A stretch of DNA of 33,567 nucleotides from a virus, in IMG/VR virus record IMGVR_UViG_3300003322_000593, positions 1 to 33,567 of that record; one strand, 5' to 3'. Each line of letters begins with the position of its first letter. Positions within the stretch are counted from its first letter, which is position 1. Position numbers and translations under genes: made by a program. Below are positions 2,746 through 28,914 of the stretch, piece by piece. Below the pieces are notes generated by a model that worked only from the letters and a program-made list of their open reading frames with translations, made no database searches and was not told the origin of the DNA.

Positions 2746-3096
2746 ATGACAAACGAAACTGTATCACAGCAGGACGAGCTTTGCCGAAAACTCGTGCAGG
2801 AGGTGGTTGCGGCATGCCGCGGCGCACTGACCATCAAGGACATCTGTGAACGGGTGCACGCCCGTGACGACGTGACGGTGCGCCAAGTGCCGGCCGCGTT
2901 GATCCGCAGGACCATTATTGCCCTCGAGGCCGAGGAGGTGCTTGATACCGACCAGGTTGGCACGAGCCAGCGCGTCTATTTCACCGCTGGGCGCCGAGTT
3001 CGTACCGGCGTGCGCTGGATTTCGGCCCACGCGACTCCGCCGATGCCGGCGATGCCGGCGCGTTCGTGGTGTGCCGGGCTGGAGGCACATGTATGA
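2746..3096 (+). CDS. Uncharacterised small protein, possible winged-helix
   Basis: This 116-residue protein opens the early operon after the hairpin at 2701-2720. Residues 12-75 look like a helical winged-helix fold (LVQEVVAACRGALTIKDICE, then VRQVPAALIRRTIIALEAEE, and a possible wing TSQRVYFTAGRRV). The tail is Met/Pro/Ala-rich and overlaps the next gene, so it may be dictated by that gene's ribosome site. No Shine-Dalgarno precedes the ATG (CTACTTCC), so translation may be weak or start differently. The stop overlaps the next start by four bases. A DNA-binding role in early regulation is an inference from the fold only. Confidence 0.6.
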   Translation: MTNETVSQQDELCRKLVQEVVAACRGALTIKDICERVHARDDVTVRQVPAALIRRTIIALEAEEVLDTDQVGTSQRVYFTAGRRVRTGVRWISAHATPPMPAMPARSWCAGLEAHV

Positions 3097-5162
3097 AGCG
3101 CGACCTGTTCACCGTCCCGCTGGACCTGGGCAGCGAGCTGATTATCGATAACTTCGCTGGCGGTGGAGGCACATCCACCGGCCTCGAGGAAGCTTTCGGG
3201 CGCCCGGTCGACATCGCGATCAACCACGACCCCGAGGCCTTGGCCATGCATGCGCTGAACCACCCATACACGCGACATCTATGCGAGAGCGTTTGGGACG
3301 TCGATCCGATCGACGTCACGAACAATCGCCCAGTCGGCCTGGTGTGGTTGTCGCCGGACTGCAAGCACTTCAGCAAGGCCAAGGGCGGTAAGCCGGTCGA
3401 GAAGAAGATCCGCGGACTGGCCTGGGTGACGCTGCGCTGGGCAGCGAAGTGCAAACCTCGCGTGATCATGCTGGAGAATGTCGAGGAGTTCAAAACCTGG
3501 GGACCGCTCAAGGTCAAGATGGTCGACGGCGGCGAAGTATGGTATCCGGACCCGGCCAAGCGCGGTGTCACGTTCAAGAGCTTCGTTCGCCAGCTGGAAG
3601 GGCACGGCTACCGGGTCGAGTTCCGCGAGCTGCGCGCGAGTGACCACGACACGCCGACGATCCGAAAGCGTTTGTTCATGGTGGCTCGGCGCGACGGCCT
3701 GCCGATATGCTGGCCCGATGCTACGCACGGCGCACCGGAGTCGCCTGCCGTGCAGGCCGGCAAGCGGCTCCCGTACCGGACGGCGGCAGAGTGCATCGAC
3801 TGGTCGCTGCCGTGCCCAAGCATCTTCGGCCGCAAGCGGCCGCTGGCCGAGGCCACGATGCGTCGCATCGCGAAGGGCTTCATGCGCTACGTCGTCAATT
3901 CCACCGATCCGTTTATCGTGGGGCAGGGTGGGCCGATCTATTCCGGAAAGCCGAAATCCACGAACGAGCCATTCGGCACGCTGACGACCGAGAACCACCG
4001 CGCCGTCGTCGTGCCAAGCATCGTGCCGGTGACGCACCAAGGTGGCGACCGCAGCGAATCGGTGCACGAGCCATTCCGCACGATCACCGGCGCCCACCGT
4101 GGTGAGAAGGCACTGGCGACGGCGACTATGGTTCAGATCGGCTACGGTGAGCGCGAGGGGCAGGCACCGCGTGCGCTGGACATCGGGCGGCCGTTGGGCA
4201 CCGTCGTCGGGTCGAACAAGGCTGCGCTGGTCACGGCCTTCCTCAACGAACACGCGAACGCCAGCAACCAGCGCGTGATGCCCGTGGACGCGCCGTTGCG
4301 CACGATCTGTGCGCAGGTGAAGGGTGGGCACTTCAGCATGGTGTCGGCGACGCTCGTCAATGCTGCGCACGGTGCAGTTTCGCCATCTGGCGTGAAGCCG
4401 ATCGACGCGCCGCTGGGCACCGTGACCGCAAGCGGCGGGAAGGCGCTGGGCGTGGCGTTCCTGGCCAAGCACTATACGGACGTGGTCGGCTCGAAGCTGG
4501 ACAACCCGATCGGCACCGTCACCTGTTTCGACCACCACAGCCTAGTCACGGCGCACCTGACGAAGTTCCGCACCGGGTCCACCGGTAGCGATTTGGCCGC
4601 CCCGGTGCCGACCATCACTGCCGGGCCGAAGGAAAACCCGGCGGGCGCGCCGCACGCTCTCGGCCTCGTGGCCGGCACGCTGGTCAAACTGCGCGGCACG
4701 AGCAGCACGACGCCCGTCGACGAACCGCTGCACACGGTCAGCGCCGGCGGACAGCATCACGCGGAGGTGCGCGCCTTCCTTGTCAAGTACTACGGTGCCG
4801 ATCAGGATCCGCGCCTTGAGGAACCGCTGCACACCATCACGACGAAGGACCGCTTCGGCCTGGTCACGATCCAGGGCGTCGATTACGAGATCGTCGACAT
4901 CGGCCTGCGCATGCTGGCCCCGCACGAGCTGTACCGCGCGCAGGGTTTCCCAGCATCGTACATTATCCACGAAATTCCGGACCCGTCCCTGTTGTTCATG
5001 GACGGACAGCAGGCTGTCGCCGACCCGCGCACCCTGCCGCGCGTGAAGCTGAGCAAATCAGCCCAGGTGCGCATGTGCGGAAACAGCGTGTGCCCTCCGC
5101 TCGCCAAGGCCCTGATCGTGGCGAACTTCGGCCACGAACGCCACTTTGCGAGGGTTGCATGA
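3093..5162 (+). CDS. DNA (cytosine-5) methyltransferase with nine-repeat recognition region
   Basis: A 689-residue C5 methyltransferase that transfers methyl from SAM to cytosine in DNA. Motif I is DNFAGGGGTSTG (19-30), motif IV SPDCKHFS with catalytic Cys90 (PDC instead of the usual PPC), motif VI ENVEEF (128-133), motif VIII TIRKRLFMVARR (189-200), motif IX RMLAPHELYRAQGFP (606-620) and motif X CGNSVCPPLAKAL (662-674). Between VIII and IX, where the target-recognition domain normally sits, residues about 288-600 hold nine imperfect repeats with a core like EPLxTIT. Usual family length is 350-450. I chose the ATG at 3093 (GGAGG seven bases upstream) over the in-frame GTG at 3066. It is coupled to its neighbours by four-base overlaps, in an early cassette with an adenine methylase. 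It probably protects phage DNA from host restriction; no partner nuclease is seen. Specificity unknown. Confidence 0.92.
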   Translation: MKRDLFTVPLDLGSELIIDNFAGGGGTSTGLEEAFGRPVDIAINHDPEALAMHALNHPYTRHLCESVWDVDPIDVTNNRPVGLVWLSPDCKHFSKAKGGKPVEKKIRGLAWVTLRWAAKCKPRVIMLENVEEFKTWGPLKVKMVDGGEVWYPDPAKRGVTFKSFVRQLEGHGYRVEFRELRASDHDTPTIRKRLFMVARRDGLPICWPDATHGAPESPAVQAGKRLPYRTAAECIDWSLPCPSIFGRKRPLAEATMRRIAKGFMRYVVNSTDPFIVGQGGPIYSGKPKSTNEPFGTLTTENHRAVVVPSIVPVTHQGGDRSESVHEPFRTITGAHRGEKALATATMVQIGYGEREGQAPRALDIGRPLGTVVGSNKAALVTAFLNEHANASNQRVMPVDAPLRTICAQVKGGHFSMVSATLVNAAHGAVSPSGVKPIDAPLGTVTASGGKALGVAFLAKHYTDVVGSKLDNPIGTVTCFDHHSLVTAHLTKFRTGSTGSDLAAPVPTITAGPKENPAGAPHALGLVAGTLVKLRGTSSTTPVDEPLHTVSAGGQHHAEVRAFLVKYYGADQDPRLEEPLHTITTKDRFGLVTIQGVDYEIVDIGLRMLAPHELYRAQGFPASYIIHEIPDPSLLFMDGQQAVADPRTLPRVKLSKSAQVRMCGNSVCPPLAKALIVANFGHERHFARVA

Positions 5163-5347
5163 GCGCCGGGTTTCCATCCCGGCTCGCCTCGGACCTGTAC
5201 CGCGAGCGCACGGCGGCGAGCCCGCCGGTGTCCCTGGTGCGCAAACGCTGCGCGTGCGGCAAGGTCGTGACCGCCAAGCAACTGGTCCAGTACGGCAAAT
5301 GTGGTGCGTGCGTGCGCGCTGCGGCTCCGGTAGGGGAGGCGGCATGA
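5159..5347 (+). CDS. Small zinc-ribbon protein
   Basis: This 62-residue protein has four cysteines in a C-x-C and C-x2-C arrangement (CACGKVVTAKQLVQYGKCGAC), a probable single zinc knuckle. The start overlaps the methyltransferase stop (ATGA) and is preceded by GAGG; its own stop overlaps the next start. It is sandwiched between two DNA methyltransferases and so may assist or couple them, but that is guesswork from position. I do not recognise a named family. Confidence 0.65.
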   Translation: MSAGFPSRLASDLYRERTAASPPVSLVRKRCACGKVVTAKQLVQYGKCGACVRAAAPVGEAA

Positions 5348-6213
5348 TGGAGCTCGCCACCGAGATCACGCGGCCGGTGCTGCGCTACCACGGCGGGAAG
5401 TTCCGTCTGGCGCCGTGGGTCATCAGCCATTTTCCGGCGCACCGTTGCTATGTCGAGCCGTTCGGCGGCGCCGCCGGCGTTCTGGTGCAGAAGGAGCGCG
5501 CGTACGCCGAGGTCTACAACGACCTGGACGGCGACATCGTGAACCTGTTCCGTGTGCTGCGCGACCCGGGCCAGTGTGCGCGCCTGGTTAATCAGGTGCT
5601 GCTGACGCCTTACGCGCGCGACGAGTTCAGCGCTGCCTACGAGCCCACCGACGATCCAGTCGAGCGCGCGCGCCGTACGCTGGTCCGGGCCGAAATGGGC
5701 TTCGGATCGGCCGGCGCCACGAAGGGGCGGACCGGGTTCCGCATCGACACTCGCCGCAAACACGGCACCGCGCAGGAGCTGTGGCGTCGGTTCCCCGACG
5801 CGCTGACTCAGGTGTGCGACCGCCTGTGCGGCGTCATGATCGAGAACCGTCCGGCGCTGAGCGTCATTCACCAGCACGACGTCGAGGACACGCTGTTCTA
5901 CGTTGACCCGCCCTACGTGATGGAGACCCGCAATGTGGGGGCGCGCCGTGGCCGCTACTACAACTGCGAATTGACGGACGAGGACCATGCCGAGCTGCTG
6001 CAGCAGCTGCGCACCGTGAAGGGCATGGTCGTGCTGAGCGGCTATCCGAGCGGTTTGTACAAGGATGCGCTGCAGGACTGGGCTATGACCACGACCGAAG
6101 CGCGGATCTCGTCAGCCCGCGGCACCGCGATCCGCACGGAATGCATCTGGTTGAACCCAGCGTGCGCCGACGCGCTCGACCGACAAAATTTACAAGCAAG
6201 GTTATTTGCATGA
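5344..6213 (+). CDS. D12-class DNA adenine methyltransferase (Dam-like)
   Basis: A 289-residue SAM-dependent N6-adenine methyltransferase. The SAM-binding region shows RYHGGKF (14-20) and VEPFGGAAGVLVQK (37-50), followed by YNDLDGDIVNLFRVLR (58-73); the catalytic motif is DPPY (188-191). This is the order and length of the Dam/D12 family. ATG 5344 is preceded by GGGAGG; ATG 5347 is an equally possible start. A long upstream extension of the frame runs through the previous gene and is not used. It overlaps both neighbours by four bases. With the C5 methyltransferase it gives the phage both A and C methylation, likely against host restriction or for regulation. Target sequence cannot be told from this. 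Confidence 0.92.
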   Translation: MMELATEITRPVLRYHGGKFRLAPWVISHFPAHRCYVEPFGGAAGVLVQKERAYAEVYNDLDGDIVNLFRVLRDPGQCARLVNQVLLTPYARDEFSAAYEPTDDPVERARRTLVRAEMGFGSAGATKGRTGFRIDTRRKHGTAQELWRRFPDALTQVCDRLCGVMIENRPALSVIHQHDVEDTLFYVDPPYVMETRNVGARRGRYYNCELTDEDHAELLQQLRTVKGMVVLSGYPSGLYKDALQDWAMTTTEARISSARGTAIRTECIWLNPACADALDRQNLQARLFA

Positions 6214-7295
6214 GCATCATTCACGTAGCGTCGGTATCCAGCGGTATCGACAGCCAACTCACTCTGGAGCTGGCCGTCGAACGTTTCGGTGCGCATCGCG
6301 TCGTCGGCATTTTCTGCGACACCGACAACGAGGACCAGGCGGTCTATGACCACCTGGACTACCTAGAACGACGGATCGGCGTGCGCATCCACCGTTTGAA
6401 GGCCGACTTTACTCAGCAGATCGCCGAAAAGCGCCGGTTCGTGGCGCGGGACGCGCGCACCGGCCGCGAGTACGACACGAAGCCGGTATTCGAGGCCGAC
6501 GGGAAGACGCCGGTCTGGAGGCGCGACGGCTTCGGCAACATCGTCATGAAGAAGGGCAGGCCGGTACAGAGAACCGTCAAGGTCGGCGGCGGCCGGCGCA
6601 AGCGCTGGTCGAACAAGGCAAAGCGCCGCGCGCTCGGCGTGCTCTACCCGACCGGAAACGCGTTCCTCGACATGTGCATCTGGAAGGGACGCTTCCCATC
6701 GCGCATGGCGCAGTTCTGCACAGAACAGCTGAAGCGCAACTTGGCCGTCGAGTTCCAGCTGTCGTTGGTCGAGCAGGGCCACACTGTCGTCAGCTGGCAG
6801 GGTGTGCGCCGGGACGAATCGGACGCTCGCAAGGATGCGCTGAAATTCGAACCCCTGGGCGGCCGAATGTTCATCTACCGACCCATCGTCGACATGACCA
6901 AGGCGGAGGTATTCGCCGAGTGCGCCGCGCGTGGACGTGCGCCGAACCCACTGTACTTGGAAGGTTGCGACCGCGTCGGTTGTGCGCCGTGCATCAACGA
7001 GAGCAAGAAGGGGATCCAGCAGCACAACCTGCGCCGACATCACCACTTGCAGCGCATCAGTGAGTGGGAGCGCATCGTTTCGATGGCGAGCAAGCGCGGC
7101 TACAGCACGTTCTTCCACAAAGTCGACAACCAGAGCGGCCAACGAGAGTCCGCCATCTACGCTCGCAACGAGGTGTGGCAGGTGGTGCAGTGGGCGCAGA
7201 CGAGCCGCGGAGGCCGGCAGTATTCGCTGCTGACGGCCCTGGAAGAGCCGACGGCCTGCTCGTCGTCATATGGTCTGTGCGACAGCGCAAATTAA
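6210..7295 (+). CDS. PAPS-reductase-like PP-loop protein
   Basis: A 361-residue member of the phosphoadenosine-phosphosulfate reductase / adenine nucleotide alpha-hydrolase fold family common in phages. The N-terminus carries the PP-loop SVSSGIDSQ (8-16), a variant of SGGxDS with Ser in place of the first Gly. Later segments RFPSRMAQFCTEQLK (161-175) and GVRRDES (198-204) are characteristic of the phage branch, and C253, C258 and C261 (GCDRVGCAPC) could bind a metal or Fe-S cluster. Known relatives reduce PAPS, or as DndC take part in DNA phosphorothioation; which applies here is unknown, and no Dnd partners are visible. The start at 6210 is coupled (ATGA) to the adenine methylase, with AAGG upstream. 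A role in nucleic-acid modification is inference from the cassette. Confidence 0.82.
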   Translation: MSIIHVASVSSGIDSQLTLELAVERFGAHRVVGIFCDTDNEDQAVYDHLDYLERRIGVRIHRLKADFTQQIAEKRRFVARDARTGREYDTKPVFEADGKTPVWRRDGFGNIVMKKGRPVQRTVKVGGGRRKRWSNKAKRRALGVLYPTGNAFLDMCIWKGRFPSRMAQFCTEQLKRNLAVEFQLSLVEQGHTVVSWQGVRRDESDARKDALKFEPLGGRMFIYRPIVDMTKAEVFAECAARGRAPNPLYLEGCDRVGCAPCINESKKGIQQHNLRRHHHLQRISEWERIVSMASKRGYSTFFHKVDNQSGQRESAIYARNEVWQVVQWAQTSRGGRQYSLLTALEEPTACSSSYGLCDSAN

Positions 7296-20913: not shown

Positions 20914-21871
20914 GAATAGCCAGATTGAATGGACCGACCACACATTCAACCCGTGGATCGGCTGCACCAAGGTAAGCCCGGGCTGTGACCACTGCTATGC
21001 GGAGCGCGACATGGACCACCGCTTCGGCCGCGTCACGTGGGGCCCGCAGGGCGCACGCGTGCGCACAAGGCCGGCCAACTGGCGCAAGCCGCTGGCTTGG
21101 AACGCGCAGCACGCCGAGTTCTACGCGAAGCACGGGCGCCGGCAGCGCGTGTTCTGCGCCAGCCTGGCCGACGTGTTCGACAATCAGGTTGAGGCATCTT
21201 GGCGCAATGCCTTTTTCGACCTGATCGAGGCCACACCGAATCTCGACTGGTTGTTGCTCACGAAGCGGATCAGCAATGTGAGGTGGTTCGCGCCGTACAG
21301 CTGGATAGAGCAGGGCAACTGGCCGGCGAACGTGTGGCTGGGCGCTACCATCGTCAACCAGGCCGAGGCCGACCGCGATATTCCGAAGCTACTTGAGGTG
21401 CCGGCGCGTGTTCGCTTCCTGTCAATGGAGCCTCTGCTCGGCCCGGTCGACCTGAGGCTGATGGCCAGGTCGTTCGGGTTCCCCAAGCACATCGCGCGTG
21501 ACGGCCGTGCCGTGGGTATGCCGCAGGGGCTGCATTGGGTGATCGTGGGTGGCGAAAGCGGCCCGCAGGCCCGGCCCATGAGCATTCAGTGGGTGCGCGA
21601 GTTGCGCCACCAGTGCTACATGGCCGGCGTGCCGTTCTTGTTCAAGCAGTGGGGCGAGTGGGCGCCGGCCGACATGGTGCCGGCTGAAACCGCCGGCCGT
21701 TATGCATTTGGTGACTACGAGCACGATCGCGCCCGGTTCGTCCAGACGAAACACTACCCGCGCGCATTCGATCGCTTCGGCGCCCGATGCGTGCTCAAGC
21801 GCGTGGGCAAGAAGGCCGCCGGGCGCCTCCTCGACGGCGTGCGGCACGACGGCTACCCGGAGGTCTCGTGA
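20906..21871 (+). CDS. Phage Gp37/Gp68-family protein (DUF5131, three-Cys motif)
   Basis: A 321-residue member of the Gp37/Gp68 family (PF07505). The hallmark IEWTDHTFNPWIGCTKVSPG followed by CDHCYAE gives the C-x6-C-x2-C motif (about residues 20-30) that names the three-Cys family, probably an Fe-S or metal site. WLLLTKR, RFLSMEPLLGPVDL and WVIVGGESGPQARPM are further family signatures, all present, so it is intact and of usual length. Members are frequent in prophages; the enzymatic activity is not established to my knowledge. AGGAGG lies five bases before ATG 20906. It forms a coupled set with the ASCH-like, Cys-rich and LigA-related genes that follow. The usual TcmP partner is not seen. 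Confidence 0.85.
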   Translation: MAENSQIEWTDHTFNPWIGCTKVSPGCDHCYAERDMDHRFGRVTWGPQGARVRTRPANWRKPLAWNAQHAEFYAKHGRRQRVFCASLADVFDNQVEASWRNAFFDLIEATPNLDWLLLTKRISNVRWFAPYSWIEQGNWPANVWLGATIVNQAEADRDIPKLLEVPARVRFLSMEPLLGPVDLRLMARSFGFPKHIARDGRAVGMPQGLHWVIVGGESGPQARPMSIQWVRELRHQCYMAGVPFLFKQWGEWAPADMVPAETAGRYAFGDYEHDRARFVQTKHYPRAFDRFGARCVLKRVGKKAAGRLLDGVRHDGYPEVS

Positions 21872-24479: not shown

Positions 24480-25094
24480 ATGGCAGAGAAGAAAAACGTT
24501 GACTGGGACCTAGTCGAGCGCGACTGGCGCGCCGGCATCAAGTCCAAGGCGCAGATGGCCGCCGAACACGGCGTATCGCGCCAGGCCATGGACAAGCGCT
24601 TCGCCAAGCTGGGCATTACGCGCAACCTCGCAGACAAGATCCGCGACAAGGCCGCGTCGATCGTCGAGCGGGCGATCGTCGAGGCCGAACCGCTGTCGCC
24701 GGCGACGGAGCGCGAGATCGTCGATGCCAACGCGGCGATGCAGTCGCAGATCATCCTGGCGCACCGCCAGGACATCCAGCGTACGCGCAAGATCGCCATG
24801 AAGCTGATGGACGAGCTGGAGGTCCAGACCGACAACGCCGACCTGCTGGACCAGCTGCGCGCCGCCTTGTTCGACCCGGAAGACAAGGGCATGTTGAAGC
24901 GCCTCGAGGCCTTCGACAAGCTCATGTCGTTGGGGAGCCGCGCCGGCACCATGCGCACGCTCGCCGAGACGATGCGCACGCTGATCGCGATGGAACGCCA
25001 GGCCTTCGGATTGGACGACAAGGACGAGGACAAGGGCGGCGGTGGCATCGACGACGTCATCCGTGAGGTGGAGGCTCACAGTGGCGACAGCTGA
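24480..25094 (+). CDS. terS: Terminase small subunit
   Basis: A 204-residue DNA-recognition subunit of the packaging motor. Residues about 8-45 carry a helix-turn-helix (WDLVERDWRAGIKSKAQMAA then HGVSRQAMDKRFAKLGI), followed by long helices for oligomerisation (REIVDANAAMQSQIILAHRQ) and an acidic C-terminal tail (GLDDKDEDKGGGG) that should contact the large subunit. It directly precedes and overlaps terL by 14 bases. The ribosome site is weak (GGAAG, far upstream). Assignment rests on HTH, acidic tail and position; TerS sequences diverge strongly, so family identity was not checked by search. Confidence 0.8.
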   Translation: MAEKKNVDWDLVERDWRAGIKSKAQMAAEHGVSRQAMDKRFAKLGITRNLADKIRDKAASIVERAIVEAEPLSPATEREIVDANAAMQSQIILAHRQDIQRTRKIAMKLMDELEVQTDNADLLDQLRAALFDPEDKGMLKRLEAFDKLMSLGSRAGTMRTLAETMRTLIAMERQAFGLDDKDEDKGGGGIDDVIREVEAHSGDS

Positions 25095-26613
25095 CGCCGA
25101 GAGCCGGAAGCGCGCGGTCGTCTTGAAGCTGCAGCGGGATATCAAGCTGCATGCCGAGACCTGCATGAAGGTCAAGGCCAAGAGCGGCAAGATCGTGCCA
25201 TTCCGCCTGAACCGCGCGCAGCGGTACATCCACGTCGCGATCGAAGAGCAGCGCGCCCGTACCGGCAAGGTACGCGCCATCATCCTCAAGGGACGGCAGC
25301 AGGGCGCCTCGACGTACATCGGCGCCCGCTTCTACTGCATCAGCAGCATCAACAGCGGCAGGAACGCGTTCATCGTCGCCCACGAGCAGAAGGCGACCGA
25401 TAACCTGTTCAAGATGGTGAAGCGCTACCACGCGCACAACCCGTTCGCGCCGTCGACCAGCAACACCAACGCCAAGGAGCTGGTGTTCAACCGCCTGGAC
25501 GGCGGCTACCAGCTGGCGACGGCCGGCACCAAGGACGTCGGCAGGTCGAACACGGCGCAGCTGCTGCACGCGTCCGAATTCGCGTTCTGGGACAACGCGG
25601 TGCTGCACCTGGCGGGCCTGGGCAACATCATTCCTGACGAAGCCGGGACCGAGATCATCATCGAGTCCACCGCCAACGGCATCGGCAACAAGTACCACGA
25701 GCTGTGGCAGGACGCCGAGGCCGGCAAGGGCGAATACATCGCGATCTTCGTCCCGTGGTTCTGGCAGGACGAATACCAAGCGCCGGTACCGGAAAACTTC
25801 GCGTTGTCGGCCGAGGACAGGAAGTACATGCAGGCCTACGGGCTGGACATGGAACAGATGGCGTGGCGATACAACAAGATCGTCACCTACGGCGATGGCA
25901 TGGCCTGGCTGTTCGACCAGGAATACCCGGCCACGCCGTCCCTGGCGTTCCGCTCGTCGACCGCGGACCCGTTGATCACCCCGACGCTGGTGATGGCGGC
26001 CGTGAACAGCCAGTTCCGCGAGCGCAGCGGGTCGTTCGTGATCGGCTGCGACCCGGCCGAGTATGGCGACGACCGCACGGCGATCGCTTTCCGCCACGGC
26101 CGGACCTGCTTCCGCATCGAGTACCACGAGAAGAAGGGGCCGATGGAAGTCGCCGGCATCCTGGTGCAGTACTACAAGGACCTGCGCCCGGATGCGGTTT
26201 TCATCGACAAGATCGGCATCGGCTCCGGCATCCTCGACCGGCTCAAGGAGTTGAACGTGCCGGCGATCGGCGTCAATTCCGCCTCGCGCGCCGAGGATCA
26301 CGAGCGCTACGCCAACAAGCGCGCCGAGATCTGGTACCGGATGAAGGCCTGGCTCGAGGATGGCCCGAACCGCCTGCCGAACGATGCCGCCCTGATCGCC
26401 GACCTGTCGGCGCCGGGCTACAAGACGTCGTCCAACGGCGGGCGCCTGGTCGAGTCGAAGGACGACATGAAGAAGCGGCAGATCCGCTCGCCGGACGGCG
26501 CCGACGCCCTGGCGATGACGTTTGCCGAGAACGTGCTGCCGCGCGCCATGCGCGAGCAGCAGGAACAGGATGCCCAGGGGCAGCGCCGCGCCGCCTCGAG
26601 GGCAGGCTACTAG
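25081..26613 (+). CDS. terL: Terminase large subunit (packaging ATPase-nuclease)
   Basis: A 510-residue packaging motor. ATPase: a Walker-A-like GRQQGAST (71-78), Walker B LLHASE (161-166, catalytic Glu166) and the coupling motif IIIESTANG (192-200). Nuclease: GCDPAEYGDDRTAI with D324, FIDKIGIGSG with D376, and PDGADALAMTF with D472/D475, the RNase-H-like acidic set. All are intact. The length matches P22/headful-type enzymes of related podoviruses. GTG 25081 is chosen for GGAGG six bases upstream; ATG 25042 would lengthen it into terS. A terminator lies 16 bases after the stop. It pumps DNA into proheads through the portal encoded next. Confidence 0.95.
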   Translation: MATADAESRKRAVVLKLQRDIKLHAETCMKVKAKSGKIVPFRLNRAQRYIHVAIEEQRARTGKVRAIILKGRQQGASTYIGARFYCISSINSGRNAFIVAHEQKATDNLFKMVKRYHAHNPFAPSTSNTNAKELVFNRLDGGYQLATAGTKDVGRSNTAQLLHASEFAFWDNAVLHLAGLGNIIPDEAGTEIIIESTANGIGNKYHELWQDAEAGKGEYIAIFVPWFWQDEYQAPVPENFALSAEDRKYMQAYGLDMEQMAWRYNKIVTYGDGMAWLFDQEYPATPSLAFRSSTADPLITPTLVMAAVNSQFRERSGSFVIGCDPAEYGDDRTAIAFRHGRTCFRIEYHEKKGPMEVAGILVQYYKDLRPDAVFIDKIGIGSGILDRLKELNVPAIGVNSASRAEDHERYANKRAEIWYRMKAWLEDGPNRLPNDAALIADLSAPGYKTSSNGGRLVESKDDMKKRQIRSPDGADALAMTFAENVLPRAMREQQEQDAQGQRRAASRAGY

Positions 26614-26629
26614 CGATACCGAACACCAC

Positions 26630-26656
26630 AAGCCCGCCGCATGCGGGCTTTTTTAT
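26630..26656 (+). terminator. Terminator between terL and portal gene
   Basis: AAGCCCGC (26630-26637), loop CGCAT, GCGGGCTT (26643-26650) then TTTTATT. A strong rightward intrinsic terminator only 18 bases before the portal start, so the portal gene needs read-through or a processed/antiterminated transcript. Confidence 0.8.
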
Positions 26657-26667
26657 TGGACCCGTGC

Positions 26668-28914
26668 ATGACGACGACCCAGGCAGAAGAACAGAAAGCG
26701 TACGAGCAGGCGGCCGCGGACGGCTTTGCCAGCGACAGCAACGCACCGTTTGTCAATCTGAGCGTGCTGGGCACCCACTTGCTGGGCGAATTCAAGCAGG
26801 CCGTCCAGGACCGCCAGAAAACCGAAGAGCGCTGGCTCAAGGACCTGCGCCAGTATCGCGGCATCTACGAGCCGGACGTCGAGGCGGCGCTCGACGAGAA
26901 TCGTTCGCGGGCTTTCGTGCGCGCCACCCGCGTCAAGGTCAAGACCGTCGACGCGCGCGTGGCCGACTTGCTGTTCCCGTCGACCGCGGACCGTAACTGG
27001 ACCGCCGAGCCGACGCCGGCGCCGTCGCTCGACCGCGAGACCAAGGGGCAGATTGCCATGGCCCTGCAGCAAGAGCTGGGCCGCGCACCGAATCGTCTGG
27101 AATTCGATGACGCCGTGCGCAAGTTCGTCCAGGACCGGGCCGAGCGCATGACGCGCGTGATGGATGACCAGCTGGTGGAGGCCCGCTACAAGAACACCGC
27201 GCGCCAGGTGCTGCACTCGGGCCACTTGTACGGCACTGGCATCCTCAAGGCGCCGCTGGTCGAGCGCAAGGTACGGAACAAGTTCGTCCTCGAGCGCGGC
27301 AAGTGGGTGATGAAGACGATTTCCTACGTTGTCCCGTTCGTCGCCTATGTCCCGCTGTGGCGGTGGTATCCGGACATGTCCGCTACCACGCTTGAGGAAT
27401 GCAATTACGTGTGGGAGACGCACGCGCTGACGCGCGACGGCCTGGCGCAGCTGGCCAACCGCCGTTCCTTCGACGGCCAGGCGATCCGCGACTTCATCCT
27501 GGCCAACCCGGACGGCTCGACCGAGGTGCGCGCCTACGACACCGAAATTCGCTCGATCGGCGACCGTAGGACCTCTAAGCAGGTCAAGGACGGCAAGTAC
27601 GAGATCCTCGAACGCTGGGGGTGGTTGCCCGGCGAGTTGCTGGAAGGCGCCGGCTTCGATGTGCCGGAAGATCGCAAGCACGAAACCTTCTTCGCCAACA
27701 CGTGGATGCTGCCCACCGGCGAGGTGATCAAGTGCGTCCTGCAGCCGATCAACGGCGTCACCTTCCCGTATCACCTGTATTACGCCGACAAGGACGAGAC
27801 GTCGATTTTCGGCGAAGGCTTCGCCTCGATCATGCGCGCCGACCAGGAGACCATCAACGCGGCCACGCGCATGGTCCTCGACCACGCCGCGATCACGGCC
27901 GGCCCGCAGCTGGAGGCCAATATGGCCCTGCTCGCGCCCGGCGAAAAGGCCGACGAGGTCTACCCGTTCAAGGTATGGAAGCGCAACGGCGAGCAGCCCG
28001 GCGTGCCGGCGGTCCGCGTCATCGACCTGCCCAGCTCGATCGAGCACCTGTTCCCGATCGTGCAGATGTTCCAGAACAACGCCGACGACGTGACGGCGAT
28101 CCCGCGCTACATGCAGGGCCAGAACGTCAACGCCGGCGCGGCCGGCACCGCATCGGGCATGTCGATGCTGCTGGCGAACGCCTCGATCGTGATGAAGGAC
28201 TTGCTGACCAACTACGACGCGGTGTCGGAGAGCTTCATCGGTGCCCTGTACAAGTGGAACATGCAGTTCAACCCGGACGATTCCATCAAGGGCGACTACG
28301 ACATCAAGGCCCGCGGCACTGCGTCGCTGATGGCGAAGGAAATCCGCGCCCAGCAACTGGACCAGTTCGCGACCACGATCGGGCCGGAAGACGCCCCCTA
28401 CATCAAGCGCGAGGAACTGCTGCGGCAGCGCGCTCAGGCCCACGACCTTACCAGCATCATCAAGACCGAGGCCGAGGTCAAGGCGGAACAGAACAGCGAC
28501 GCGGCCAAGCAGCAAGCCGCCCTGGCCCAGAAGATGCAGGAACTGCAATTGGCCCAGGCCGAGGCGAATGTTTCCAAGGTGCAGGGCGAGGTGCAGCGCA
28601 TGGCCGCCGAGATCGCACGGATCCACGCCGTTGCGACGAAAACCAACGTCGACTCGGCCTATGCGGCGATGCAGGCCGGCGCCGTGGCGACCGAGCGCGC
28701 GCATACCGCCGCAGCCGGCGACGCCATCCTCAAATCGGCCGGCTACCAGGACGCCACACCGGCGGAGCCCACCCCGGGCGCGGATAGCACGGTGCCGGCC
28801 GAGCCCGGGCCCGTTCCTCCCATCCAGACCGGCGACCGCGACCCGCAAGGCGCCCAGGTCGGCGCCAACGTGGGCGAGCTGGCCGGGATCCACACGAACC
28901 GGATTGAAGATTGA
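26668..28914 (+). CDS. Portal protein (P22-like)
   Basis: A 748-residue portal of the P22/short-tailed phage type, the dodecameric ring through which DNA enters and leaves the head. N-terminal LLGEFKQAVQDRQKTEERWL and VRATRVKVKTVDARVADLLF form the base; the middle has SAMT-like WRWYPDMSATTLEECNYVWE; IPRYMQGQNVNAGAAGTASG and SMLLANASIVMKDLLTNYDA are typical of the stem/crown. The C-terminal 150 residues are a long helical, Gln/Ala-rich barrel-like tail (QQAALAQKMQELQLAQAEAN). ATG 26668 is the likely start; an in-frame ATG at 26641 lies in the terminator. It is downstream of terL and upstream of scaffold and capsid genes, the normal order. Confidence 0.92.
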   Translation: MTTTQAEEQKAYEQAAADGFASDSNAPFVNLSVLGTHLLGEFKQAVQDRQKTEERWLKDLRQYRGIYEPDVEAALDENRSRAFVRATRVKVKTVDARVADLLFPSTADRNWTAEPTPAPSLDRETKGQIAMALQQELGRAPNRLEFDDAVRKFVQDRAERMTRVMDDQLVEARYKNTARQVLHSGHLYGTGILKAPLVERKVRNKFVLERGKWVMKTISYVVPFVAYVPLWRWYPDMSATTLEECNYVWETHALTRDGLAQLANRRSFDGQAIRDFILANPDGSTEVRAYDTEIRSIGDRRTSKQVKDGKYEILERWGWLPGELLEGAGFDVPEDRKHETFFANTWMLPTGEVIKCVLQPINGVTFPYHLYYADKDETSIFGEGFASIMRADQETINAATRMVLDHAAITAGPQLEANMALLAPGEKADEVYPFKVWKRNGEQPGVPAVRVIDLPSSIEHLFPIVQMFQNNADDVTAIPRYMQGQNVNAGAAGTASGMSMLLANASIVMKDLLTNYDAVSESFIGALYKWNMQFNPDDSIKGDYDIKARGTASLMAKEIRAQQLDQFATTIGPEDAPYIKREELLRQRAQAHDLTSIIKTEAEVKAEQNSDAAKQQAALAQKMQELQLAQAEANVSKVQGEVQRMAAEIARIHAVATKTNVDSAYAAMQAGAVATERAHTAAAGDAILKSAGYQDATPAEPTPGADSTVPAEPGPVPPIQTGDRDPQGAQVGANVGELAGIHTNRIED

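What the first reader, a model, noticed from the sequence alone, without database searches (positions are those of the whole stretch)
3957..4892. Nine tandem repeats replace the target-recognition domain of a phage C5 methyltransferase
Seen: between motif VIII (residues 189-200) and motif IX (606-620), nine imperfect units of about 32-40 residues each start with a core like [DE]-x-P-[LFIV]-x-T-[IVL] (NEPFGTLTT, HEPFRTITG, GRPLGTVVG, DAPLRTICA, DAPLGTVTA, DNPIGTVTC, AAPVPTITA, DEPLHTVSA, EEPLHTITT), often followed by LVTAFL-like strands. Known: in C5 methyltransferases this interval is the target-recognition domain. Inference: the array may be a modular DNA reader whose copy number or order sets specificity, allowing evolution by unit gain, loss or shuffling.
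Basis: partly seen in the sequence, partly recalled or inferred. Interest (0 to 1): 0.62.

Follow-up and report, generated by a model that had tools for sequence, protein, structure and literature searches.

The report
Phage methyltransferase with nine swappable DNA-readers
A phage enzyme that puts methyl marks on DNA carries nine different small DNA-recognition blocks in a row instead of one; related phages mix, gain and lose these blocks, which probably lets a single enzyme hide the phage genome from many bacterial restriction enzymes at once.

Summary
The gene at 3093-5162 (+, 689 aa) is a C5-cytosine methyltransferase. Nine units of 32-41 residues fill the target-recognition interval between motifs VIII and IX. 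Each unit carries the published "TL" motif of C5 enzymes (P-x-x-T-[ILV]), which normally occurs once.

Relatives carry 3 to 11 units. Catalytic domains up to 99% identical hold different arrays. Single whole units are lost or gained cleanly, and breakpoints lie in the strand between units. The exchanged block is loop A - TL core - loop B, the layout of a known TRD.

Unit types recur across unrelated phages, yet no array was found to hold the same type twice (0 of 69 arrays; 38 expected from free shuffling, 15-20 in position-constrained tests on 44 of them). That fits a set of different specificities, not copy number.

Tested homologues (Aeromonas phages ARM81; Paracoccus prophages) methylate many sequences, described only as "relaxed specificity".

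The best explanation is a multispecific methyltransferase with up to nine TRDs. Tandem TRDs are known from Bacillus phages, so this is a larger, combinatorial variant of a known kind. AlphaFold did not resolve the array, and no unit has an assigned target.

The parts
3093..5162 (+). C5-cytosine DNA methyltransferase gene, 689 aa
   Evidence: Pfam DNA_methylase E=3.5e-23; phrog_116 E=2.4e-96; ATG at 3093 with GGAGG upstream
3141..3194 (+). motif I, SAM binding (IIDNFAGGGGTSTGLEEA, residues 17-34)
   Evidence: near-invariant columns
3339..3395 (+). motif IV with catalytic Cys90 in the form SPDC (residues 83-101)
   Evidence: P88, D89 and C90 invariant in 72 relatives
3459..3491 (+). motif VI (LENVEEF, residues 123-133)
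   Evidence: E128, N129 and V130 invariant
3648..3698 (+). motif VIII (DTPTIRKRLFMVARRDG, residues 186-202)
   Evidence: P188-R193 near-invariant
3831..3896 (+). conserved helix just before the array (RKRPLAEATMRRIAKGFMRYVV, residues 247-268)
   Evidence: helix 253-268 in model; conserved
3906..4022 (+). unit 1 (residues 272-310), core EPFGTLTT
   Evidence: unit HMM 33.8 bits; N-terminal boundary approximate
4023..4130 (+). unit 2 (311-346), core EPFRTITG
   Evidence: 39.0 bits; same type in 22 other proteins
4131..4244 (+). unit 3 (347-384), core RPLGTVVG
   Evidence: 31.7 bits; same type in 45 other proteins at positions 1-4
4245..4355 (+). unit 4 (385-421), core APLRTICA
   Evidence: 35.4 bits; same type in 37 other proteins at positions 1-7
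4356..4463 (+). unit 5 (422-457), core APLGTVTA
   Evidence: 37.2 bits; same type in 6 other proteins
4464..4559 (+). unit 6 (458-489), core NPIGTVTC
   Evidence: 45.3 bits; same type in 31 other proteins at positions 2-6
4560..4682 (+). unit 7 (490-530), core APVPTITA
   Evidence: 25.0 bits; same type in 23 other proteins at positions 1-8
4683..4781 (+). unit 8 (531-563), core EPLHTVSA; type found only next to last
   Evidence: 50.0 bits; same type in 45 other proteins
4782..4877 (+). unit 9 (564-595), core EPLHTITT; near-universal last unit, 28 residues before motif IX
   Evidence: 17.6 bits; core-to-IX spacing 28 residues in 63 of 81 proteins; overlaps Pfam DNA_methylase positions 259-297
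4908..4952 (+). motif IX (RMLAPHELYRAQGFP, residues 606-620)
   Evidence: invariant residues
5070..5129 (+). motif X (RMCGNSVCPPLAKALIVANF, residues 660-679)

Best explanation
A multispecific C5-cytosine methyltransferase. One shared catalytic domain (motifs I-VIII, IX-X) is served by nine tandem target-recognition modules of 32-41 residues, each made of loop A, a P-x-x-T-[ILV] (TL) core, loop B and a connecting strand. Each module is proposed to position a different short cytosine-containing site for the same active site, so the phage methylates many sites and escapes many restriction enzymes. Phages gain, lose and swap whole modules by recombination in the strands between them, drawing on a shared pool of at least 50 types. 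Shown here: the units, their TL motif, the exchange boundaries, the recombination and the non-repetition of types. Known for tested homologues: broad multi-site methylation. Inferred: one module = one target, and protection as the benefit.
For: C5 motifs and fold: Pfam/PHROG matches; a model of a short relative matches M.HaeIII, M.HhaI and DNMT1 at Z about 20, with the array lying inside the aligned span. TL motif per unit: 9 of 9 units have P..T[ILV], 8 of 9 the stricter P..T[ILV][TASV]. The TL motif is the DNA-contacting TRD core 10-50 residues before motif IX, flanked by base-reading N-TL and C-TL trimers (PMC2413257). These trimers fall within loops A and B. Exchange unit: with loop B conserved, the loop A across its own core is conserved but the next loop is not in 2463 pairs of units, the reverse in 523. 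Gain, loss, swap: 3-11 units. L048/L060 differ by one clean 32-residue unit. L018/L027 (catalytic parts 99.2% identical) have 10 and 7 units. Set-like arrays: no repeated type in 69 distinct arrays, 37.8 expected; 0 against 15-20 with position kept, 44 clusters; 0 of 1122 pairs in an independent set. [quoted passage not shown] A ~69% relative of those, Pyei1_p05 (PMC6536676), has 8 units and is 39% identical to this protein. ARM81mr_p29 and ARM81ld_p31, called relaxed-specificity (PMC5537653), have about 6 units each. Precedent: tandem TRDs in Bacillus phage enzymes (PMC8936443); SPR, with triple specificity, has three TL-like cores.
Against: AlphaFold2 gave pLDDT under 50 across most of the array in both jobs, so neither a TRD fold nor a DNA-facing surface is shown. 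The unit profile finds no significant match in SPbeta/SPR enzymes, so homology to those TRDs is not shown by sequence, and hhalign aligned only the catalytic part. No unit has an assigned target. Protection reported for homologues was often partial, which a low-specificity enzyme could also give. One homologue (Phi2LM21_p23) was inactive in E. coli (PMC5537653). The sequence of JCM7686_0772 itself was not examined here.
Confidence: 0.78

Rival explanations
1. The array is one extended DNA-binding surface that makes the enzyme broadly non-specific: units add affinity or processivity, and methylation is set by a very short common motif such as CC.
For: A later paper says the Paracoccus homologues modify at least one C in the CC motif (PMC5537653); protection was partial for many sites (PMC3925955).
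Against: Affinity units should tolerate duplicates, but no type is repeated in any array. Loops A and B co-vary as blocks around a TL core. Arrays of 3 units persist beside arrays of 11.
Confidence: 0.12
2. Only the last one or two units work as the TRD; the upstream units are decorations for protein contacts, oligomerisation or decoy functions.
For: The last unit and a next-to-last type are nearly universal with fixed spacing to motif IX.
Against: Upstream units keep the TL core and its Thr as strictly as the last ones and are exchanged as intact blocks among distant phages. Tested multi-unit homologues act on many sites.
Confidence: 0.08
3. A degenerate or inactive array: repeats accumulated neutrally and specificity is vestigial.
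For: One family member was inactive when tested (PMC5537653).
Against: Open frames in 81 proteins, strict core conservation, best matches of units at a median 92% identity in other proteins, and active homologues.
Confidence: 0.02

Closest known systems
Multispecific C5 methyltransferases of Bacillus phages SPbeta, phi3T, SPR, rho11, H2 (tandem TRDs; Trautner and colleagues) and B. cereus prophage BCE_0393
   Same: Orphan phage C5 enzymes; several TL-bearing recognition modules of about 40 residues in tandem between motifs VIII and IX; modules gained or lost between relatives. BCE_0393 is reported to methylate seven targets (PMC3459991).
   Different: Here the modules are mutually recognisable repeats (one profile finds all), reach 9-11, share a strand-to-strand block structure, and come from a pool shared across many phage lineages; no significant sequence match of the unit profile to SPbeta/SPR.
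Large (about 560-700 aa) phage m5C methyltransferases with relaxed specificity: ARM81mr_p29, ARM81ld_p31, Pyei1_p05, Paracoccus JCM7686_0772/_2655
   Same: Same protein family as the window gene (39-44% identity for the three sequences compared here) with 6-8 of the same kind of unit.
   Different: In the texts read here their broad specificity is reported without tying it to tandem recognition modules.
Monospecific C5 methyltransferases M.HhaI, M.HaeIII
   Same: Catalytic fold and TL-type TRD core before motif IX.
   Different: One TL motif and one target, against nine TL cores here.

Membership tests
C5-cytosine DNA methyltransferase (PF00145) | Conserved motifs I, IV (catalytic Cys), VI, VIII, IX, X in order | tested here: met
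   Motifs located, invariant in 72 relatives, Pfam E=3.5e-23. Motif IV reads SPDC instead of the usual PPC.
C5-cytosine DNA methyltransferase (PF00145) | Canonical catalytic fold | tested here: met
   Model of 3-unit relative L099: Z 18-21 to M.HaeIII, M.HhaI and DNMT1 over about 255 residues. Window model catalytic parts mostly pLDDT above 80.
C5-cytosine DNA methyltransferase (PF00145) | TL motif in the TRD 10-50 residues before motif IX | tested here: met
   Last core 28 residues before motif IX in 63 of 81 proteins; definition from PMC2413257.
Multispecific C5 methyltransferase with tandem TRDs | Several TL-bearing modules of about 40 residues between motifs VIII and IX | tested here: met
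   Nine units of 32-41 residues.
Multispecific C5 methyltransferase with tandem TRDs | Modules behave as separable, exchangeable blocks | tested here: met
   Linkage and clean indels.
Multispecific C5 methyltransferase with tandem TRDs | Enzyme methylates several distinct sequences, one per module | not testable with these tools
   Only homologues tested, in the literature: relaxed multi-site specificity; no module-to-target map.
Multispecific C5 methyltransferase with tandem TRDs | Sequence homology of modules to the Bacillus phage TRDs | tested here: inconclusive
   Unit profile on SPbeta/SPR/SPbetaL3 enzymes: no significant match; hhalign aligned only catalytic columns. Blastp aligns the last unit with the SPbeta TL region, E=0.004 in a three-sequence search.
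Multispecific C5 methyltransferase with tandem TRDs | Orphan enzyme without a cognate restriction endonuclease | not tested
   The adjacent genes examined are a D12 adenine methyltransferase and a PAPS-reductase-like gene, but no systematic nuclease search was made.

The most novel reading that the evidence does not exclude
A phage-wide combinatorial lexicon of DNA-recognition modules. Some 50 or more interchangeable TRD blocks, each reading its own short cytosine site, are assembled into non-redundant sets of 3 to 11 on one catalytic domain and reshuffled fast enough that near-identical phages differ. Each set would reflect the restriction enzymes of the hosts, and module identity alone would predict the methylome.
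Probability: 0.5. Interest if true: 0.68.

Novelty: new variant of a known kind. Interest (0 to 1): 0.55.

Why it matters
It offers a ready explanation for the "relaxed specificity" of a widespread family of large phage m5C methyltransferases: many discrete specificities rather than sloppiness. Because the same unit types recur in many arrays, methylomes of a few dozen members could assign a target to each unit by presence and absence. That would turn protein-DNA recognition by C5 methyltransferases, where no general code is known, into a decodable problem, and it supplies natural parts for methyltransferases with chosen sets of targets. It also shows an anti-restriction gene evolving by module exchange while its catalytic core stays fixed.

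Tried and rejected
Full-length AlphaFold2 model with 72 relatives: catalytic domain good, array pLDDT mostly under 50, not interpreted. A 3-unit relative (L099) with 35 relatives: same result, so the TRD fold of a unit remains untested.
Profile-profile comparison with SPbeta/SPR enzymes: aligned only the catalytic region.
Local tandem duplication at DNA level as the origin of the array: rejected; no DNA tandem repeat in the array, and units match other phages far better (median 92%) than their own array (38%).
Within-species variation in E. coli prophages: 13 of 5426 genomes matched, 12 over most of the gene, one near-identical version at 98-99%, uninformative.
Solved structures by sequence: only weak hits to the catalytic part.
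Dziewit & Radlinska 2016 (the ARM81 study), Wilke 1988 and Sethmann 1999 are not held; what they show is taken from papers citing them.
The genome scan did not return P. aminophilus JCM7686 itself, so its unit count rests on its ~69% relative Pyei1_p05.
Regex unit counts undercount weak units.
Assigning targets from N-TL/C-TL trimers was considered and left out as too speculative.

Full report
What is there. The window is a 33,567-base virus record of IMG/VR with phage integrase, terminase, portal and major head genes. The gene at 3093-5162 (+) encodes 689 residues, a C5-cytosine methyltransferase by Pfam (E=3.5e-23) and PHROG (phrog_116). Motifs I, IV, VI, VIII, IX and X are in order and near-invariant in 72 relatives. 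The interval between motif VIII (186-202) and motif IX (606-620) is about 400 residues. It contains a conserved helix (247-268), then nine units whose cores start at residues 293, 327, 367, 401, 440, 472, 504, 545 and 578.

Is it more than chance. A profile built from units of the family and applied to the array gives 303.5 bits, against at most 9.6 for 500 shuffles; the core pattern occurs nine times against a shuffle mean of 0.22. The units come from the family that includes this protein, so that profile is not independent. The regex counts, and the published TL sub-pattern P..T[ILV][TASV] (8 in the array, shuffle mean 0.18, none outside the array in 81 proteins), are independent of it. At DNA level the array is not a tandem repeat.

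What each unit is. In C5 methyltransferases the TRD carries a TL motif, consensus ...P(STCA)PT(ILV)(TASV)..., 10-50 residues before motif IX, in contact with DNA and flanked by base-reading trimers on both sides (PMC2413257). All nine units have P-x-x-T-[ILV]; eight match the stricter form. The last core sits 28 residues before motif IX in 63 of 81 proteins, and its region overlaps Pfam DNA_methylase positions 259-297. Each unit therefore looks like one more copy of the TRD core, rather than a replacement of the TRD.

How the array varies. Eighty viral relatives have 5-11 profile-detected units. Shorter relatives and isolate phages go down to 3. The family is widespread, with 357 phage records matched by protein. 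Among pairs with catalytic parts at least 90% identical, only 18 of 71 share exactly the same set of scored unit types. L018 and L027, 99.2% identical in the catalytic parts, have 10 and 7 units. L048 and L060 differ by one clean 32-residue unit.

Where the blocks break. Each unit was split into loop A (before the core) and loop B (after it). Among pairs of units from different proteins that share loop B, 2463 also share the loop A of the same core but not the loop across the following strand; 523 show the opposite. For example, loop A type VKLRGTSTAAG occurs 34 times, always with its own loop B type, but after nine different preceding units. The exchanged block is therefore loop A - TL core - loop B, with breakpoints in the LVTAFL-like strand. 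This is the arrangement expected of an N-TL - TL - C-TL reader.

Sets, not copies. With blocks clustered at 55% identity there are 50 types. Every scored unit of the window except unit 5 has a match above 80% identity elsewhere, while the best match inside its own array is 31-42% (the first and last units were not scored). No array repeats a type: 0 of 69 distinct arrays against 37.8 expected, and 0 of 44 catalytic clusters against 15-20 expected when position is kept (none of 2000 permutations as low). With a fixed-window comparison, 0 of 1122 pairs within arrays of an independent set, and 1 of 2394 in the first set, reach 55%, against about 4-5% of pairs between arrays. Relatedness among arrays is only partly controlled by this. 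The pattern fits different specificities on one enzyme and fits neither copy-number dosage nor a repeated affinity element.

Function. The protein itself has not been tested. Homologues have. Paracoccus aminophilus prophage enzymes JCM7686_0772 and _2655, expressed in E. [quoted passage not shown] Their ~69% relative Pyei1_p05 (PMC6536676) has eight units and is 39% identical to this protein along its length. ARM81mr_p29 and ARM81ld_p31 of Aeromonas phages, described as m5C methyltransferases with relaxed specificity (PMC5537653), have about six units each, including types present in the window. Tandem TRDs giving several targets are established for Bacillus phage enzymes (PMC8936443). There, SPbeta has two and SPR, whose enzyme has triple specificity, three TL-like cores, and BCE_0393 of a B. 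cereus prophage methylates seven sequences (PMC3459991). In none of the passages read is the relaxed specificity of the large proteobacterial family tied to its tandem units; that link is the inference made here. The benefit, protection from host restriction, is inferred from the known role of phage orphan methyltransferases.

What was not shown. AlphaFold2 did not fold the array. The catalytic domain of a short relative matches M.HaeIII, M.HhaI and DNMT1 at Z about 20. Sequence homology of the units to Bacillus TRDs could not be shown. No unit has a target, and no DNA contact is demonstrated.

Verdict. A real and orderly feature: a multispecific methyltransferase of an unusually modular kind, known in principle, new in scale and in the combinatorial, non-repeating use of a shared unit pool.

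Noticed in passing
L018 and L027, MTase array (loop A of the GYGER...GQAPRAL unit): A zinc-ribbon-like insert (ALYHCKACGDNF...CPRCGEE) sits inside loop A of one unit type in some relatives. The window copy of this unit lacks it. It might alter that unit's target.
   Followed up: no
L094 (Pseudomonas phage Lana), 304-3447: The homologue is 1047 aa because an intein-like element appears to be inserted at the catalytic cysteine of motif IV (SPDC); inferred from the sequence by eye.
   Followed up: no
5159-7295: The MTase is followed by overlapping genes: a 62-aa CxC..CxxC protein (5159-5347), a D12-class adenine methyltransferase (5344-6213) and a PAPS-reductase-like protein (6210-7295). In E. 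coli phage Eeyore (L083) a PAPS-reductase gene also adjoins the MTase, so the link may be functional.
   Followed up: partly
21603-21667: A 65-bp stretch is 86-92% identical to Gordonia phage genomes although the surrounding region is not; the matching gene is annotated DUF5131 in one of them.
   Followed up: no
3037-3060: A short DNA tandem repeat (9-bp unit CCGGCGATG, 2.7 copies) lies about 30 bases upstream of the MTase start.
   Followed up: no
25057-26631 and 26653-28893, minus strand: Very long antisense open frames (524 and 746 aa) mirror the terminase and portal genes; probably a side effect of 64% G+C.
   Followed up: no
L086 13716-15047 (SPbeta mtbP): SPbeta MtbP carries a CxxC...CxxC insert near motif IV that SPR lacks.
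   Followed up: no
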